Assembly: GCA_016926135.1 (NCBI GenBank)
Contig: JAFGPH010000506.1
Location: 1-7,254, forward strand
Reading direction: 5' to 3'
DNA length: 7,254 nucleotides
Origin: Deltaproteobacteria bacterium
GTDB taxonomy: Bacteria > Desulfobacterota > DSM-4660 > Desulfatiglandales > HGW-15
Below are positions 961 to 7,254 of this stretch, one piece after another. How positions within the stretch are numbered: position 1 is the first letter of the stretch; the number at the start of each line of letters is the position of its first letter. Position numbers and translations under genes: made by a program. Under the pieces are notes generated by a model, which worked only from the letters and a program-made list of their open reading frames with translations, had not been told where the DNA came from and did not search any database.

Positions 961-2970
961 TTGATAGAAGGTGTCTTCAAGCGATCTGCTGATGGGGTAT
1001 CCGGTAAGGCCGTTCAGATCCGCCGGGGTAAGGAGACCGAAAACCCTCTCAACGTGGCGTTTGTGGGCGGGGGTCGAGCTTGCCATGACCTGCTCCGACT
1101 CCTGGACCAACAGCGCCTCTCCAAGCTGGGGTTGAGAATCCTGGGCGTTTTCGATTTCCATCCCGATGCCCCAGGCCTTCAATATGCACGTAATCTGAAC
1201 CTCCTGGCGACGACCCGCATGGAGGATCTTTTCACCCTGAAGGGGCTCAACCTCATCATTGAACTCACCGGATCGCATCGGGTCCTTGACGAGATCCACG
1301 AGAAAAGGCCCCCCGGCGTATCGGTTCTGGACCGCGAGTCTGCCCGGCTCCTTTGGGACCTCATCCAGATGGAGGTGGAAAAGAGCGAACTCGAGGTGGA
1401 GCGAAAGAGATACGAGGAGAGTGCGCAGCGGCAGACCCAGGTCATTCTGGACTCCCTTCCCTACCGCGTGATGGTGGTGGACAGGGACCTGAGGATCAAC
1501 ACCATCAACCAGACTTTCGTGCGAGACCACGGTCTGAAGCGCGAAGAGGCACTGGGAAAGCATTGCTATGAGCTCAGGTGGGGTTTGGACCGGCCCTGCC
1601 ATGAATACGGAAAGCCCTGTTATGTCACGTATCGAATCGAAGAGCTCAAGGAAAGGGGCTTTATCAGTTCCTATCAAGAGCACGTGGACGAAAACGGCGA
1701 AACCCGTTTCGACGTGATAACCATTGCCCCGATGTATGACGAGCAGGGCGAAGTGACCCACATTGTCGAAGCATCCAGGGATGTCACCGAAAGAATCAAG
1801 CTGGAGAGGGAGTACCAGAAGTCCAGCACCTTTCTCGAAAAGGTGATCCAGAGTACCGTGGATGGCATCGTCGTGGTGGACACCAAGGGGAAGGTCCTTA
1901 TCTTCAACCACGGCATGGAGCAGCTGACCGGGTATTCGGCCGCCGACATCATCAACCGGAGTCACCTCAGCACCTTCTACGATATCGATGTGGCCAAGGA
2001 GAACATGCGGAAGATGCGAAGCGACCAGTATGGGCCTCCCGGAAAGTTGAATCCCACCAGCATGACCGTGAAGACCAAAGACGGGATAGAAATCCCGGTC
2101 ACGCTCAGTGCCTCCATTATCAATATTGACGGCAAGGAAATGGGCAGTGTCGGGGTCTTTACGGACATGAGGGAAGTTCTCAAGATGAGGAAGGAACTGG
2201 AAGATGCGAACATCCAGTTGATACAGTCCCAGAAGATCGCCTCCATCGGCAGAATGGCTGCCGGTGTTGCCCATGAGATCAACAACCCTCTCTCAGCCAT
2301 TCTGATCTATGCCGAATTACTAAAAGATAACTTAAAGGAGTCACCTCAATACATCAAAGACATTGAGGAAATAATAGGCCAAGTGCTTCGGTGCAAGAAG
2401 ATCGTCACTGATCTCCTGGAGTTCAGTCGCGAGTCTGCCGGCAAGACCTCTTCTTTCAGCCTGGATGAACTGCTGCAAAAGTGCCTTGAGCTTCTGATCC
2501 ACAAGGCGGCCTTCCAGAACATCCAGGTCACCAGCCATATTCAGGAGGGCATGCCCGGCGCGGTGGGGGACATGGGTCAGATCCAGCAGGTCTTCACCAA
2601 TCTCTTCATCAATGCCGCAGATGCCATGGATGGAAAGGGCAAGCTGGACATTCAGGCGAGTTACCTTGCTGACAAGGGCTCTTTCATTGTTCGCATCGCC
2701 GATACGGGGCCGGGAATCCCGATGGAAGTCAGGGACAAGGTCTTCGACATCTTTTTTACCACAAAGGCTGTCGGGAAGGGCACGGGTCTGGGTTTGAGCA
2801 TCTCCCAGAACATCATCAAGATCCACGGTGGAGAGATCCGCTTCGAATGCCCGCCCGAAGGGGGAACCACCTTCATTGTGGAACTCCCTGCCGCCCATCA
2901 TGGAGTGTTCCCCGATGAATCCGCCTTTTTCGGAGAGGAACCCGTCTTCGTGGGACCGGATGGATCATGA
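961..2970 (+). CDS. Soluble sensor histidine kinase: Rossmann NAD-binding-like domain, two PAS, HisKA, HATPase
   Basis: This is a 669-residue cytoplasmic kinase with no membrane segments. Residues 31-130 form a Rossmann-like unit: strand NVAFV, glycine loop GGGRAC (36-41), an acidic residue ending strand 2 (GVFD, D65), and LNLIIELTG (96-104). It resembles the dinucleotide-binding domains of homoserine dehydrogenase or DapB-like oxidoreductases. A coiled linker (about 132-160) leads to PAS1 (about 161-279), which carries C202, C213 and C220, and PAS2 (about 290-409). HisKA has the phospho-acceptor H438 in VAHEINNPLSAI. The ATPase domain has N551 (N box), D581 in DTGPGIP (G1) and GKGTGLGLS (605-613, G2), so the kinase looks catalytically complete. 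TTG 961 is the chosen start: an in-frame stop lies at 928-930, no in-frame ATG precedes the first domain, GGTGGA (952-957) lies just upstream, and the next GTG (1054) would cut strand 1. Its stop overlaps the next start (ATGA), so the two are probably translationally coupled. NAD(H) binding is inferred. Confidence 0.9.
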   Translation: MIEGVFKRSADGVSGKAVQIRRGKETENPLNVAFVGGGRACHDLLRLLDQQRLSKLGLRILGVFDFHPDAPGLQYARNLNLLATTRMEDLFTLKGLNLIIELTGSHRVLDEIHEKRPPGVSVLDRESARLLWDLIQMEVEKSELEVERKRYEESAQRQTQVILDSLPYRVMVVDRDLRINTINQTFVRDHGLKREEALGKHCYELRWGLDRPCHEYGKPCYVTYRIEELKERGFISSYQEHVDENGETRFDVITIAPMYDEQGEVTHIVEASRDVTERIKLEREYQKSSTFLEKVIQSTVDGIVVVDTKGKVLIFNHGMEQLTGYSAADIINRSHLSTFYDIDVAKENMRKMRSDQYGPPGKLNPTSMTVKTKDGIEIPVTLSASIINIDGKEMGSVGVFTDMREVLKMRKELEDANIQLIQSQKIASIGRMAAGVAHEINNPLSAILIYAELLKDNLKESPQYIKDIEEIIGQVLRCKKIVTDLLEFSRESAGKTSSFSLDELLQKCLELLIHKAAFQNIQVTSHIQEGMPGAVGDMGQIQQVFTNLFINAADAMDGKGKLDIQASYLADKGSFIVRIADTGPGIPMEVRDKVFDIFFTTKAVGKGTGLGLSISQNIIKIHGGEIRFECPPEGGTTFIVELPAAHHGVFPDESAFFGEEPVFVGPDGS

Positions 2971-4451
2971 GTGACACGACCGATCAGAAGGTGAAGGTCC
3001 TGGTGGCTGATGACGAAAGGCCGATCAGGGATGGGTGTCAGCGTGTTCTCACCTCCCGGGGCTACGACGTCATGCTGGCGGAAGACGGTCGGGAGGCCCT
3101 GGACATCATATCGAGACGCGGTGTCGATATCGTCCTCCTGGACTTGAAGATGCCGCTCATGGGCGGAGAGGATGTCCTCGAAATCGTTTGCACCCGGCAC
3201 CCGGATATCCCGGTCATCATCATCACAGGCCACGGCACCGTGGATACGGCTGTGGCGTGCATGAAGAAAGGCGCCTACGATTTCATCACCAAGCCTTTCC
3301 AGGTGGAACAGTTCCTGATCACCGTCCGCAGGGCCGCGGAGAAAAGGAAACTGGAGCAAAGAGCGAAGCTTTTCCAGGAGGAAAGCGCACGGAATCTTTA
3401 CGACCTCCACCTTGAGAAGAGCCGGGTGAAGACGATTATCCAATGTATGAGGAACGGGGTAATGGTGACCAACCGCAATCTGGAGGTCGTCCTTCACAAC
3501 CCTGCCTTGATGCGCCTCATGGAGGTTTCCGGGGAACTCGGGAACCCGGTCCCTATCAGGGACATTCTGCGGGATGAATTCCTCATTGACACACTGAGAA
3601 GAATCCTGGATAGCGATCCTGTTTTGGATGAAGCAATCATGCAGGAGACCTCCGCCGGAAAGAACATGCTGAGGGCCCTATCCGCCCCCCTGCTCGCCCC
3701 CGGCGGTAACGCCGTCGGCACGGTGACCGTGATGGAAGACATCACCCCCTTCAAACAGCTCGAACAGATAAGGACCGACTTCGTGAATATGGTCGTCCAT
3801 GAACTGCGCAGCCCTCTTGTTTCCATCAAACAAATGAACAGCGTTATCCTGAAAGGGTTGGCGGGACCCCTGGCGGAAAAGCAGGAGGACTTCATTGGGA
3901 GAGGAAACAGGAAGATCGACACCCTGCTGGCGCTGATCAACGATCTTCTGGATGTGGCGAAGATTGAGGCGGGGCAGTACGTCCAGAGGAGAGTTCCTAC
4001 CGACATCGGAAAGATCCTTGAGGATACGACAGCCTTCATGGAGCCCAGCGCCAAGGAGCACGGGGTTGTACTCACCTGTTCTTGCAGCAATCTGAAATCC
4101 GTTCGGGCGGACCCGAAGAGCATGGAGGAGATCTTCAACAACCTCATCACCAATGCCATCAATTATTCTCCCGGCGGGGGCAAGGTGACGGTGACCGCCA
4201 CAGGCATGGGCGAGTATATTGAAGTCAAGATACAGGACACGGGAGTGGGCATATCGCCCGAGGAACTGCCGAAGGTCTTTGACAGGTTCTATCGCGTGAA
4301 ACATCCAAAGACCAGACAGGTGGCAGGTACGGGCCTTGGGCTTGCCATCGTGAAAGGAGCAGTGGAGGCTCATCATGGCACCATTGACGTGGAGAGCGAT
4401 CCGGGAAAGGGTACCCTATTCCGTATTCTCCTTCCCGCCATCGAGGAGTGA
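2967..4451 (+). CDS. Receiver - PAS-like - HisKA - HATPase hybrid signalling protein, copy 1
   Basis: This is a 494-residue soluble protein. The N-terminal receiver (about 8-125) has the acidic pocket D15/D16, phospho-acceptor D59 in LLDLKMP, T87 in ITGHGT and K109 in FITKPF. A coiled linker and a weak PAS-like region (about 150-265; NGVMVTNRNLEVVLHNPALM) follow. HisKA carries H278 in VVHELRSPLVSI. The ATPase domain has N396 (N box), D424 in DTGVGIS and GTGLGL (454-459). All residues expected for phosphoryl uptake and for ATP-dependent autophosphorylation are present, but there is no DNA-binding or other output domain. It is therefore likely an intermediate in a phosphorelay, perhaps receiving phosphate on D59 from the kinase encoded just upstream. 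Its ATG overlaps that gene's stop and has only a weak RBS, which fits translational coupling. C371 and C373 form a CSC pair at the start of the ATPase domain that the next gene also has. Confidence 0.93.
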   Translation: MSDTTDQKVKVLVADDERPIRDGCQRVLTSRGYDVMLAEDGREALDIISRRGVDIVLLDLKMPLMGGEDVLEIVCTRHPDIPVIIITGHGTVDTAVACMKKGAYDFITKPFQVEQFLITVRRAAEKRKLEQRAKLFQEESARNLYDLHLEKSRVKTIIQCMRNGVMVTNRNLEVVLHNPALMRLMEVSGELGNPVPIRDILRDEFLIDTLRRILDSDPVLDEAIMQETSAGKNMLRALSAPLLAPGGNAVGTVTVMEDITPFKQLEQIRTDFVNMVVHELRSPLVSIKQMNSVILKGLAGPLAEKQEDFIGRGNRKIDTLLALINDLLDVAKIEAGQYVQRRVPTDIGKILEDTTAFMEPSAKEHGVVLTCSCSNLKSVRADPKSMEEIFNNLITNAINYSPGGGKVTVTATGMGEYIEVKIQDTGVGISPEELPKVFDRFYRVKHPKTRQVAGTGLGLAIVKGAVEAHHGTIDVESDPGKGTLFRILLPAIEE

Positions 4452-4457
4452 ACTGAG

Positions 4458-4471
4458 GGGTGACCGCACCC
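4458..4471 (+). other. Short GC-rich hairpin in the gap between the two hybrid genes
   Basis: GGGTG (4458-4462) pairs with CACCC (4467-4471) around a 4-base loop, starting 7 bases after the stop of copy 1. There is no T run after it, so it does not look like an intrinsic terminator. It may set mRNA stability or relative expression. The rest of the 126-base gap (4452-4577) shows no gene and no clear promoter. Confidence 0.35.
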
Positions 4472-4577
4472 GGATTCGTACTGCATCGCGCGCTCCGGCA
4501 AGGATGAGCATCTCTGCGTCCCGATTCGCGGGCACCGGAGGGGTGAAACCGCCAGCACACCCGAATGAGCGCTGAAT

Positions 4578-6074
4578 GTGGACGAAGTGACCAAAATACT
4601 GCTTGTGGACGACGAAAAGGCTTTCAGGGACACCTCCCGACGACTTCTGACCGGGAAGGGGTACGACGTCGTTACCGCCGAAAACGGCGAGCTGGCCATG
4701 GAAGTCCTTCTCAAGAACCCGGTGGATGTGATACTCCTGGACCTCAAAATGCCTGTGATGGGGGGCGAGGAGTTCCTCAACAGGATCCACCCCCTGTATC
4801 CGGAGATCCCCGTCATCGTATTGACCGGACACGGCACCATGGACAAAGCGGTGGAATGCATGAAAGAGGGGGCCTACGATTTCATCACCAAACCTTTTGA
4901 ATTCAACCAGCTCTTCTTTACCCTCGAAAGGGCTGTGGAGAAAAGAAAGCTCGAGCAGAAGGCCAAGCGTTTCCAGGATGATATCGTCCGAAGTTACCTG
5001 GATTTGAGCACGGAAAAAAAACGGCTGGAAACCATTATCAGTTGCATGGCCAACGGGGTCATGGTGACCAACAAAAACATGGAGGTCATCCTCCACAATC
5101 CGGCGCTCCTTAGAATGACGGGGATCTCAGACCCAGTGAGCTGCCCCGTTCCCGTGGATCGCATCCTCAACGACCCCGTTCTTCTGGAAACCCTGCGGAA
5201 GATCCAGCGCGGCCAGATCTCGGAAAAGGAATTCGTCTCCCAGGAAATTCACCTGAGCGAGAAGGTGTTGAGGGCCATTTCGGCCCCTACCCTGGGGCCG
5301 GACAGGAACGTATTCTGGGCCGTGGCCGGCGCAGTAACCGTGTTGGAGGATGTCACGGCCTTCAAGGAATTGGACCGGATGAAGTCCGAGTTTGTAAACA
5401 TGGTGGCCCACGAACTCCGGAGCCCCCTCGTTTCCATCCGCCAACTCCAAAGCGTCCTCCTGGAGGGCATGGCCGGCACCCTCCAGGAAAAACAGAGCGA
5501 CTTTGTCAGCCGGGGGATCCGTAAGATCGACGCGCTTCTGGAATTGATCAACGACCTTCTCAGCGTGGCAAGGCTTGAGGCAGGCAGGCTTCAGCAGCAG
5601 CAGATCAGGGTGGACGTTTCGGAGGTAGTCTCGGAAACAGCGGCCCTCATGGGGCCCCGGGCGAGGCAGCAGGGAATCACTCTCGTGTGTTCCTGCGACG
5701 ACCCGCCGCCCGTCTATGGGGATCCCAAGAATATAGAAAAGGTGATCGGCAACCTGATCAGCAATGCGATCAACTACTCTCCCGACGGCGGAAAGGTATC
5801 GGTCCGTGCACGGAGCCAAGGCGATCTGGTAGAGATTGCCGTGGCCGATACGGGAGTCGGTATTGCGCCCGAGGAGTTGCCGAAGATCTTCGACAGGTTC
5901 TACCGTGTGAAACACCCCAAGACCCGTCATGTGACAGGGACAGGTCTGGGCCTGTCCCTGGTGAAGGGGATTGTGGAGTGCTACCAGGGAAAGATCGAGG
6001 TTGAAAGCTCTCCCGGCCGGGGAAGCACCTTCCGGATCTTGCTTCCACGCATGAGGGAAGGCCCGGGAGACTGA
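4578..6074 (+). CDS. Receiver - PAS-like - HisKA - HATPase hybrid signalling protein, copy 2
   Basis: This 498-residue soluble protein is a clear paralog of the preceding gene, with the same domain order and nearly identical motif positions. Receiver: D11/D12, phospho-acceptor D55 in LLDLKMP, TGHGT, K105 in FITKPF. A PAS-like region (about 145-265) contains NGVMVTNKNMEVILHNPALL. HisKA has H278 in VAHELRSPLVSI. The ATPase domain has N396, D424 in DTGVGIA and GTGLGL (454-459). The ATPase core RFYRVKHPKTR matches copy 1 exactly, and the CSC pair C371/C373 is also kept. The N-terminal half and the PAS-like region differ more, as expected if signal input has changed. GTG 4578 is chosen because an in-frame stop lies at 4566-4568 and the receiver begins almost at once; ATGs at 4565 and 4576 are out of frame. 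The RBS is poor (GGAGG at 4539-4543 is too far), so initiation may be weak. There is no output domain. Confidence 0.92.
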   Translation: MDEVTKILLVDDEKAFRDTSRRLLTGKGYDVVTAENGELAMEVLLKNPVDVILLDLKMPVMGGEEFLNRIHPLYPEIPVIVLTGHGTMDKAVECMKEGAYDFITKPFEFNQLFFTLERAVEKRKLEQKAKRFQDDIVRSYLDLSTEKKRLETIISCMANGVMVTNKNMEVILHNPALLRMTGISDPVSCPVPVDRILNDPVLLETLRKIQRGQISEKEFVSQEIHLSEKVLRAISAPTLGPDRNVFWAVAGAVTVLEDVTAFKELDRMKSEFVNMVAHELRSPLVSIRQLQSVLLEGMAGTLQEKQSDFVSRGIRKIDALLELINDLLSVARLEAGRLQQQQIRVDVSEVVSETAALMGPRARQQGITLVCSCDDPPPVYGDPKNIEKVIGNLISNAINYSPDGGKVSVRARSQGDLVEIAVADTGVGIAPEELPKIFDRFYRVKHPKTRHVTGTGLGLSLVKGIVECYQGKIEVESSPGRGSTFRILLPRMREGPGD

Positions 6075-6139: not shown

Positions 6140-7015
6140 ATGCCACTAAGGGATAGAATAGGTTCCGGGAAATTCGTCTTGCTGGGAGAATTTGAGACCC
6201 CTAAAGGGGCCGATTTTTCGGGGCTGTTGAAAAACGCCGATGCCTGTAGGGGTCGCCTGGATGCGATTGTCGTGCCCGAAATGGCAAACGCCGTCCTGAA
6301 GTCGAGTTCCCTGGGTGGGTGCGCCTTCTTTCAGAGGGAGGGAATCGAAACCGTGATGCAGGTATGCTGCCGCGACAGGAACCGTCTGGCCCTCCAGGCG
6401 GACATCCTTGCTGCGTCGGCCCTGGGCATCCAGAACATCATGGCGGTTCCGGGTGAGGACATCCGATTCGGAGATCATCCCCAGGCAAGGGTCGTGAACG
6501 ACCTGGACCTGATGGGGTTGATCGAGACCCTGCAGAAACTGCAGGGGGGCAAGGATCTCGCGGGCATTGAACTGAGGGGGGTTCCCCGCTTCTTTATTGG
6601 CTCCATGATCGACACGGGAGCGCCGGGAGGGCTCCTCACCATTGAACTGGAAAACCTCAAGAGAAAGATCGACCTTGGGGTGGAGTATATCATCACCAAT
6701 CCCGTCTTCGACCTGCGACGTTTCGATCAGTTTATCAAGAGGGTGGAAACCAGCAAGGTTGCCGTGATTCCCACGGTGTTGCTCCTCAAATCCGCGGGGA
6801 TGGCGCGTTACATCGACCGCAACGTCAAAGGGATGAGTATTCCGCCCGAGGTCATCGCCCGCATCCAAAAGGCCCCCGACAAGGTGAAGGAGTGTGTTTC
6901 CATTGCCGCCGACTCGATTCTCCGCATCAGGAACATGGGGATGGCCGGCGTACTGATATCCACGGCAGGGTGGGAGGACAAGATCCCTTTGATCCTGGAC
7001 CAAGCGAACCTCTAA
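6140..7015 (+). CDS. Divergent methylenetetrahydrofolate reductase-like (MetF family) protein
   Basis: This 291-residue soluble TIM-barrel protein is about the usual length of a bacterial MetF. It opens with LLGEFETPKG, where family members keep a catalytic Glu near a TPKG/FPP turn. GIQNIMAV and then PGED (104-107) follow where most members have RGD or TGD (D120 in E. coli). FGDHPQAR (110-117) and NDLDL are typical of acetogen and sulfate-reducer MetF. Strand IITNPVFD (184-191) has N187 followed by Pro where the folate-contacting Gln is normally found. The C-terminal half aligns with the partial MetF at 2-391 (SAGMARYI against SVGMAQYM; MAGVLISTAGWEDKIP against GVHLMAIEWEHRVP), so the two are paralogs. 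It sits 20 bases before hdrA, and MetF proteins of this type often partner Hdr subunits. It could be a methylene-THF reductase with altered kinetics, or a paralog with a different substrate or a structural role. The family is secure; the activity is not. Confidence 0.85.
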   Translation: MPLRDRIGSGKFVLLGEFETPKGADFSGLLKNADACRGRLDAIVVPEMANAVLKSSSLGGCAFFQREGIETVMQVCCRDRNRLALQADILAASALGIQNIMAVPGEDIRFGDHPQARVVNDLDLMGLIETLQKLQGGKDLAGIELRGVPRFFIGSMIDTGAPGGLLTIELENLKRKIDLGVEYIITNPVFDLRRFDQFIKRVETSKVAVIPTVLLLKSAGMARYIDRNVKGMSIPPEVIARIQKAPDKVKECVSIAADSILRIRNMGMAGVLISTAGWEDKIPLILDQANL

Positions 7016-7035: not shown

Positions 7036-7254
7036 ATGACCGAGCAACAGAAAAGACCATCTGGAGCGATCCTGGTCGTAGGCGGGGGTATTGCGGGCAT
7101 GCAGGCGGCCTTGGACCTTGCAGACTCCGGTTACTATGTCCACCTGCTGGAGAAGTCATCCGCCCTGGGCGGGGTGATGAGCGAACTGGACAAGACCTTT
7201 CCCACCAATGACTGCTCCATGTGAATTATCTCCCCCAAACTGGTCGAGGTCGGC
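7036..7254 (+). CDS. hdrA: Heterodisulfide reductase subunit A (HdrA), N-terminal part, probable selenoprotein with Sec63 at TGA 7222-7224
   Basis: HdrA is the FAD- and iron-sulfur-containing subunit of soluble Hdr complexes that transfer or bifurcate electrons. The first 62 codons give an FAD Rossmann start: strand AILVVGGGIAGMQAAL with GxGxxG at 16-21, the strand-2 acidic residue E39 (LLEK), then GGVMSELDKTFPTNDCSM. HdrA normally continues with Cys and then a stretch like IISPKLVEVG. Here the codon for that Cys is TGA, and the frame continues exactly as expected through IISPKLVEVG to the window edge. The TGA is therefore best read as selenocysteine, next to the conserved C60. Sec-containing HdrA is known in some methanogens and deltaproteobacteria. 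This protein starts directly at the FAD domain, without the N-terminal extension of methanogen HdrA. A standard gene caller would report a false 62-residue protein. Alternatives are a nonsense mutation or a sequencing error. Confidence 0.85.
7225..7254 (+). promoter_or_regulatory. Start of a candidate bacterial SECIS element (truncated)
   Basis: Downstream of the TGA, GTCG (7243-7246) can pair with CGGC (7251-7254), including one G-U pair, around an AGGU loop (7247-7250). The loop starts 22 bases after the TGA, within the usual bacterial SECIS spacing, and its GG resembles the AGGUCU loop of E. coli fdhF. The window ends inside the 3' arm, so the full stem cannot be tested. Confidence 0.45.

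What the first reader, a model, noticed from the sequence alone, without database searches (positions are those of the whole stretch)
7036..7254. hdrA with in-frame TGA at a conserved cysteine: probable selenocysteine HdrA
The frame reads TFPTNDCSM, TGA, IISPKLVEVG. In ordinary HdrA the position after DCSM is Cys, and it lies in the region linked to iron-sulfur binding near the FAD. Homology continues on both sides of the TGA in one frame, the hallmark of a selenoprotein. Sec here would change the redox chemistry at the flavin/Fe-S site of an electron-transferring enzyme. The gene will be mis-annotated as a 62-aa fragment unless Sec is considered.
Basis: partly seen in the sequence, partly recalled or inferred. 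Interest (0 to 1): 0.85.

Follow-up and report, generated by a model that had tools for sequence, protein, structure and literature searches.

The report
Selenocysteine-containing HdrA electron-transfer protein, truncated
The end of this DNA piece holds the start of an electron-transfer gene (HdrA) in which a stop-like codon almost certainly inserts selenocysteine; this is a correct and useful reading, but of a selenoprotein family that is already known from related sulfate-reducing bacteria.

Summary
Window 7036-7254 reads as the N-terminus of HdrA with an in-frame TGA (7222-7224). Of 80 related loci, 55 have TGA there and 25 TGC/TGT. Only the TGA loci share a near-invariant stretch, CTGGTCGAGGTCGGC, 15 nt past the TGA (exact in 52 of 55, against 0 of 25 Cys loci). 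The window carries it exactly, to its last base. It is the 5' part of a bacterial SECIS-like hairpin. Of 15 relatives' genomes chosen, SelB passes its cut-off in 14 and tRNA-Sec scores 69-78 bits in 13. The window's own genome is not held, and the hairpin's end lies outside the window.

This is a new member of a known kind: Sec-HdrA and Sec-HdrL of Deltaproteobacteria were in print by 2006-2009. Synteny suggests MetF-linked, GltD-fused HdrL, as in Moorella's MetFV-HdrABC-MvhD. I add one point: Sec63 aligns with Cys197 of solved HdrA, described as a ligand to the partner HdrA's N-terminal Fe-S cluster. A selenolate ligand bridging two HdrA modules is therefore predicted, not shown.

The parts
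7036..7221 (+). N-terminal 62 codons of hdrA (probably the long, GltD-fused hdrL type): FAD-binding Rossmann motif VVGGGIAG and the TFPTNDCSM motif; the reading frame starts too close to the Rossmann motif to hold the N-terminal Fe-S domain of archaeal HdrA
   Evidence: type inferred
7222..7224 (+). in-frame TGA, read as selenocysteine (Sec63); aligns with residue 197 (Cys) of HdrA 5odc_A
   Evidence: residues 12-72 align without gaps to 5odc_A 146-206; TGA in 55 of 80 related loci, TGC/TGT in 25
7225..7254 (+). continuation of hdrA, IISPKLVEVG, cut by the end of the window
7240..7254 (+). first 15 nt of the SECIS-like element CTGGTCGAGGTCGGC: 5' arm 7240-7246, loop AGGT 7247-7250, start of 3' arm 7251-7254; the last three bases of the 3' arm lie beyond the window
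   Evidence: exact match to the element found in 52 of 55 TGA loci and 0 of 25 Cys loci; hairpin as
6140..7015 (+). methylenetetrahydrofolate reductase-like gene (MTHFR, 291 aa) ending 20 nt before hdrA; the same neighbour precedes the TGA-type long hdrA in L013, L009, L068 and L028
   Evidence: Pfam PF02219 5.8e-25; 72.5%, 68.0%, 52.4%, 48.6% identity
2..391 (+). C-terminal part of a second MTHFR (MetF-like) gene; a partial match stands downstream of hdrL and metV in L028
   Evidence: PF02219 3.5e-23; 67.5% over 40 aa to L028 7239-7358

Best explanation
The window ends inside a gene for a selenocysteine-containing HdrA, the FAD-binding, electron-bifurcating subunit of heterodisulfide-reductase-like complexes, probably from an uncultured bacterium of the Desulfobacterota. 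The TGA at 7222-7224 is decoded as Sec by SelB and tRNA-Sec, directed by a hairpin that starts 15 nt after the TGA (5' arm 7240-7246). Shown here: the TGA/Cys position, the constrained element in TGA relatives only, and its first 15 nt in the window. Inferred from synteny and nearest relatives: the full protein is the ~1,475-aa HdrL type, made of two HdrA modules and a GltD-like NAD(P)H domain, and works with MvhD, MetV and MetF in methyl-/methylene-tetrahydrofolate redox chemistry of the Wood-Ljungdahl pathway. Inferred from alignment to a solved structure: Sec63 takes the place of Cys197, which supplies one ligand to the N-terminal Fe-S cluster of the partner HdrA. In the fused relatives module 1 has the Sec/Cys but no N-terminal cluster domain, and module 2 has that domain but no Cys there. 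Sec63 would therefore be a selenolate ligand to a cluster held by the second module of the same chain. PMC9012536 puts that cluster on the low-potential branch.
For: Frame and motif. TGA in 55 and TGC/TGT in 25 of 80 loci. Exact 15-nt element in 52 of 55 TGA loci against 0 of 25 Cys loci, Fisher p = 9e-18 without correction for shared ancestry. Mean synonymous entropy over codons +6 to +11 is 0.07 bit in TGA loci and 1.50 in Cys loci, while the flanks lie at 1.06-1.31 in both. The window's five codons match the element exactly, chance 0.0075 under its own codon usage. The hairpin's seven pairs form in 98.3% of 235 cells, with one double change C-G to U-A in L077. Of 15 relatives' genomes, SelB passes its cut-off in 14 and tRNA-Sec scores 69-78 bits in 13; the one genome with neither over cut-off (L070) has the Cys form. 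MTHFR gene directly upstream in four TGA loci, all of the long type. Downstream in L009: mvhD (PF02662, 1.8e-48) with a TGA at codon 16 in CCQF-U, then metV (PF12225, 1.8e-36), then an MTHFR-like gene cut by the locus end. Alignment to residue 197 of 5odc_A and the role of Cys197 as a ligand from the partner HdrA (PMC9012536 passages). Module 2 lacks Cys in the corresponding stretch in 43 of the 43 loci where both modules could be read by pattern, of 64 long enough. In the model of the L026 relative, module 2 (454-1001) fits nearly the whole of HdrA 5odc_A (2-644) and module 1 (6-435) fits HdrA from residue 149 on.
Against: No genome is held for the window, so its sel genes and the end of the hairpin were not seen. 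The window's 33 nt from the TGA on do not fold better than shuffles (z 0.29), and the elements of two relatives score z -1.77 (L013) and -0.14 (L009). Rfam gave no match at the L013 element. Covariation gives no statistical support: one double change, reached by 40 of 500 shuffles, and a covariation score reached by 474 of 500; 4 of 235 cells are unpaired. On supported branches only 4 independent Sec/Cys pairs exist, p 0.125. Six of the seven Cys-form genomes tested also have SelB and a strong tRNA-Sec, so the sel genes do not separate the forms; in the controls tRNA-Sec passes its cut-off in 5 and SelB in 2 of 14 well-known genomes. The HdrL assignment rests on 52-73 residues and a neighbour gene; the window's place in the tree is poorly supported. 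The Fe-S ligand role is by alignment only; no coordinates were available to measure distances. The chains that fit module 1 best (8rwn_A, 7bke_A) are themselves partial, so that fit alone does not show the lack of the N-terminal domain. PMC12350162 names HdrA's clusters and their path differently from PMC9012536, so the branch on which the cluster sits is uncertain.
Confidence: 0.88

Rival explanations
1. The TGA is a true stop: a decayed gene or a one-base sequencing error in a Cys-type hdrA.
For: Cys is found at the same place in 25 of 80 relatives, and one base separates TGA from TGC/TGT; reads could not be checked.
Against: The 15 nt at 7240-7254 match the TGA-type element exactly, which none of 25 Cys loci do. 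The residue before the last Gly is Val, as in 53 of 55 TGA loci, whereas 13 of 25 Cys loci have Cys there and 6 have Val. The frame is otherwise intact, and its GC3 (0.71) is like that of the other genes (0.70-0.74).
Confidence: 0.04
2. TGA means tryptophan throughout this genome (a code-4-like recoding).
For: 6 of 120 listed database relatives carry Trp at this place, which shows that some pipelines read it so.
Against: Three other genes of the window end in TGA (961-2970, 2967-4451, 4578-6074). None of the 80 loci has TGG at this place; they have TGA, TGC or TGT.
Confidence: 0.01
3. Sec63 is a redox-active residue that pairs with Cys60 (C-x-x-U, a selenenylsulfide near the FAD) and is not an Fe-S ligand.
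For: The motif is listed as CxxU (review PMC13188914, passages), the fold is related to thioredoxin reductase, and one paper calls the step from the [2Fe-2S] cluster of the MvhD-like subunit to FAD 'an unknown mechanism' (PMC12350162, passages).
Against: The aligned Cys197 is described as a cluster ligand from the partner HdrA (PMC9012536), and the fused proteins show the matching split of ligand and cluster domain.
Confidence: 0.25
4. The gene is the short (~1,010-aa) HdrA type without a GltD domain, or a split hdrA, and its link to MetF is accidental.
For: Identity of the readable residues is nearly the same to both types: mean 0.82 for each Sec group, best 0.871 for long and 0.855 for short. 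8 of 55 TGA loci stop 67 to 264 codons after the TGA, 6 of them at 67-72.
Against: The MTHFR gene directly upstream is shared with four loci that are all long type, and the nearest rows by tree path lie in the long-type clade.
Confidence: 0.2

Closest known systems
Sec-containing HdrA of Deltaproteobacteria, Clostridia and Sec-decoding archaea (Zhang et al. 2006, PMC1794560; NCBIfam NF040770, motif CxxU in PMC13188914)
   Same: Same protein family and CxxU motif; SECIS-like element right after the UGA in the bacterial relatives. Moorella thermoacetica HdrA is on their selenoprotein list.
   Different: The window's copy is a new sequence, cut after residue 73; its neighbours are MTHFR and two-component genes, not frhD-frhG-frhA.
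HdrL of Desulfobacterium autotrophicum HRM2 (PMC2702500)
   Same: Long HdrA/glutamate-synthase fusion followed by mvhD; HdrL1 and HdrL3 contain Sec (passages). Architecture matches L009.
   Different: The length of the window's protein is unseen; the passages I read do not place HdrL beside MetF.
MetFV-HdrABC-MvhD methylenetetrahydrofolate reductase of Moorella thermoacetica (Mock et al. 2014, not read; via passages of PMC9430772 and PMC9012536)
   Same: HdrA of 162.8 kDa with a GltD insert and two TrxR-like modules, encoded with metVF and mvhD; L009 carries hdrL, mvhD, metV and an MTHFR-like gene in a row.
   Different: The relatives have an extra MTHFR-like gene directly before hdrL; hdrB and hdrC were not searched for.
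HdrA in the solved Hdr-hydrogenase complex (5odc)
   Same: Sec63 aligns without gaps with residue 197.
   Different: The archaeal HdrA is one module of about 650 aa with Cys there and forms a dimer of two chains; in the relatives two modules are fused and Sec replaces Cys in 55 of 80.

Membership tests
HdrA (NCBIfam NF040770) | profile match | tested here: inconclusive
   E 4.9e-26 over residues 9-72, but 91 bits against a cut-off of 1100 set for the whole protein; only 73 residues exist in the window
HdrA (NCBIfam NF040770) | FAD Rossmann motif and TFPTxDC motif | tested here: met
Bacterial selenoprotein | in-frame UGA aligned with Cys in homologs, homology on both sides | tested here: met
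Bacterial selenoprotein | SECIS hairpin right after the UGA with G in the apical loop (rule partly from recall; a conserved apical-loop G is named in PMC1794560) | tested here: inconclusive
   5' arm and loop AGGT present, end of 3' arm beyond the window; complete in relatives. No Rfam match and weak folding z-scores
Bacterial selenoprotein | selA, selB, selC, selD in the same genome | not testable with these tools
   no genome held; in 15 relatives' genomes SelB passes its cut-off in 14 and tRNA-Sec scores 69-78 bits in 13; selA and selD not searched
HdrL (long, GltD-fused HdrA) | GltD-like NAD(P)H domain and second HdrA module | not testable with these tools
   beyond the window; seen in relatives L009 and L013; frames of matching length in L012 and L024
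MetFV-HdrABC-MvhD complex | metF, metV and mvhD in the cluster | tested here: inconclusive
   two MTHFR genes in the window; metV and mvhD are not in the window but follow hdrL in L009

The most novel reading that the evidence does not exclude
In fused HdrA/HdrL proteins of Desulfobacterota, selenocysteine is a natural selenolate ligand to an Fe-S cluster. One HdrA module donates it to the cluster of the other module in the same chain, tuning one branch (the low-potential one, if PMC9012536 is right) of an electron-bifurcating or confurcating MetF-linked complex in which MvhD also carries Sec. Eight searches listed no paper that, by title, start of abstract or the passages I read, joins Sec-HdrA with the Cys197 ligand role. 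Only open-licence papers are held, and the original structure paper was not seen.
Probability: 0.5. Interest if true: 0.5.

Novelty: new member of a known kind. Interest (0 to 1): 0.27.

Why it matters
For annotation, the gene will be called as a 62-aa fragment or with a false Trp unless Sec is considered, and both errors are visible among database relatives. For bioenergetics, the mapping of Sec onto the inter-module Fe-S ligand of HdrA gives a concrete, testable reason why Sec and Cys forms coexist: tuning of one cluster in the electron-bifurcating path. The family itself is known, so the finding is confirmatory.

Tried and rejected
The window's own genome: not held. Rfam search at the SECIS-like element of L013: no match up to E 10. 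Folding z-scores of single elements: weak, so I rely on conservation, not on folding energy. Covariation: one double change only, not beyond shuffles; A1 held 31 of the 55 primary TGA loci, 2 second copies and the window. A pairs test on the tree had too few supported pairs (4; p 0.125). An exact 41-nt piece of the window was not found in viral contigs. The model of L026 has good confidence (pLDDT 87.5), but its coordinates were not in the script folder, so the distance from residue 62 to the cluster cysteines was not measured. The L013 model (residues 1-1200, pLDDT 79, pTM 0.56, weak at 53-61 and 106-160) was not used as evidence. TGA=Trp, decay and sequencing error were considered and set aside for the reasons under rivals. 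Chain 9sfi_A shows X at the aligned place; I could not learn whether that X is Sec. Trees used 72 of 80 loci; 8 were dropped as too short on one side or with a stop inside the stretch.

Full report
What is in the sequence. From ATG 7036 the frame reads MTEQQKRPSGAILVVGGGIAGMQAALDLADSGYYVHLLEKSSALGGVMSELDKTFPTNDCSM, then TGA at 7222-7224, then IISPKLVEVG to the last base, 7254. NCBIfam HdrA2 (NF040770) matches residues 9-72 with E 4.9e-26, and five PDB HdrA sequences match with E 1e-21 to 9e-18. The ten residues after the TGA have a chance probability of about 2e-13.

Is it selenocysteine? At the position of the TGA, 55 loci have TGA, 14 TGT and 11 TGC. The TGA loci carry the element CTGGTCGAGGTCGGC starting 15 nt past the TGA: exact in 52 of 55 and one mismatch in 3. 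In the 25 Cys loci it is exact in none, and 3 have one mismatch. Synonymous variation nearly vanishes over codons +6 to +11 in TGA loci (mean 0.07 bit), but not in Cys loci (1.50), nor upstream (1.22 and 1.06) or downstream (1.31 and 1.22). That is the mark of an RNA element rather than of close ancestry. The element forms a hairpin of seven pairs with loop AGGU. In L077 a C-G pair became U-A; 4 of 235 cells are unpaired, and the covariation measures are not beyond shuffles. The window carries the first 15 nt exactly, with Val where 13 of 25 Cys forms have Cys; with its own codon use this has probability 0.0075 given the protein. The last three bases of the 3' arm would lie at 7255-7257, outside the window.

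Decoding machinery. No genome is held for the window. I chose 15 relatives' genomes (8 reached through TGA loci, 7 through Cys loci). SelB passes its cut-off in 14. tRNA-Sec passes its cut-off in 14 by the tool's tally, but I count 13 (69-78 bits): the hit in the genome of L002 is a 77-nt stretch at 47.0 bits, exactly the cut-off, which I discount. The Cys-form Bacillota genome of L070 has neither over cut-off. In the 14 control genomes tRNA-Sec passes in 5 and SelB in 2. Six of 7 Cys-form genomes also have both, so the machinery is permissive, not diagnostic. Three genes of the window end in TGA, against a Trp recoding.

Mis-annotation. Among the best 120 listed of 7,982 database proteins of 40-128 aa, 15 end right before the position, 98 have Cys, 6 have Trp and 1 lacks the motif (the query carried Cys there).

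Which HdrA. Counting codons from the position to the next stop of any kind, the 55 TGA loci fall into 20 long (1,300 or more), 18 short (850-1,100), 8 early stops, 8 cut by the contig end and 1 other (L014, 840); the 25 Cys loci into 11 long, 10 short, 1 early and 3 cut. The long type carries a GltD-like domain: L013 residues 162-563 match a glutamate synthase small chain, and L009 has PF14691 and PF07992 in this stretch. It corresponds to HdrL of Desulfobacterium autotrophicum, where HdrL1 and HdrL3 contain Sec (PMC2702500, passages). Early stops cluster at 66-72 codons in 7 loci (6 TGA, 1 Cys), perhaps split genes such as the hdrA_N-unknown-hdrA_C order named in PMC1794560. The MTHFR-like gene 20 nt upstream of the window's hdrA also stands directly upstream of the long TGA type in L013 (72.5%), L009 (68.0%), L068 (52.4%) and L028 (48.6%). 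Downstream in L009 come mvhD (PF02662, 1.8e-48) with a TGA at codon 16, metV (PF12225, 1.8e-36) and an MTHFR-like gene cut by the locus end; L028 also has PF12225 downstream. Placement of the window near L009, L013, L012, L024 and L047 agrees but is poorly supported.

How it probably works. P0001 residues 12-72 align without gaps to 5odc_A 146-206, so Sec63 corresponds to residue 197. PMC9012536 (passages) states that Cys197, from the thioredoxin-reductase domain, is one ligand of the N-terminal Fe-S cluster of the other HdrA in the dimer, and that fused HdrAs, Moorella's among them, split the two features between modules. That paper calls the structure M. wolfeii; the PDB title of 5odc names Methanothermococcus thermolithotrophicus. 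I checked the split here. Of 64 loci long enough, both modules could be read by pattern in 43, and in all 43 module 2 lacks Cys in the corresponding stretch; the N-domain pattern (V/I)CxC(G/N)xN(I/V) lies 399-938 residues after the position in 63 of 64 (not in L014, which stops early). Four cysteines of that domain are invariant in the alignment of 42 short-type proteins (463, 465, 498, 523 of L026) and in that of 19 long-type proteins (936, 938, 971, 996 of L013). In the L026 model, module 2 (454-1001) fits nearly the whole HdrA, N-terminal domain included; module 1 (6-435) fits HdrA from residue 149 on, though the best chains there are partial. So Sec63 is best seen as a selenolate ligand bridging the modules. 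The rival is a CxxU redox pair near FAD. PMC12350162 names the clusters and their path differently, so the branch is uncertain.

Known or new. Sec-HdrA was reported in bacteria in 2006 with 16 cases, Syntrophobacter (7) and Moorella among the organisms (PMC1794560, passages), and is listed in a 2026 review as CxxU (PMC13188914, passages). Papers on D. autotrophicum and Desulfococcus multivorans report it too (passages). Mis-annotation of Sec-HdrA as partial sequences in methanogens is also in print (PMC12054007, passage). The window therefore adds a member. What I did not find in the papers searched is Sec placed on the Cys197 ligand. A tree of 72 of the 80 loci needs 9 Sec/Cys changes, at least 4 on supported branches.

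Noticed in passing
L031, L063, L078 (Cys forms): These Cys-type hdrA genes have only one mismatch to the 15-nt SECIS-like element, so they may be former Sec genes with a remnant of the element.
   Followed up: partly
LT984854.1: L001 (TGA) and L055 (TGT): One genome carries both a TGA-type and a Cys-type HdrA, like the Sec/Cys isoform pairs of Methanococcus maripaludis (PMC11097638, passages).
   Followed up: no
L003 10146-10190: A second TGA-containing HdrA paralog has different DNA after the TGA (AAGATGCTGGATGTCGGTCGACATC); by eye it could form a shifted hairpin GAUGUC-GGUC-GACAUC, a different SECIS solution.
   Followed up: no
L009 10452-10877: mvhD (PF02662) with an in-frame TGA at codon 16 (CCQF-U) directly after the Sec-hdrL: a second likely selenoprotein in the same cluster.
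   Followed up: partly
window 961-6074: A PAS histidine kinase and two response-regulator/histidine-kinase hybrids of like architecture lie between the two MTHFR genes; L020 has a kinase (37%) and a hybrid (37-40%) before its TGA-type hdrA, so they may regulate the cluster.
   Followed up: partly
L027, L029, L032, L034, L052, L066 (TGA) and L064 (Cys): Frames that stop 66-72 codons after the Sec/Cys position, at nearly the same place, perhaps split hdrA genes.
   Followed up: partly
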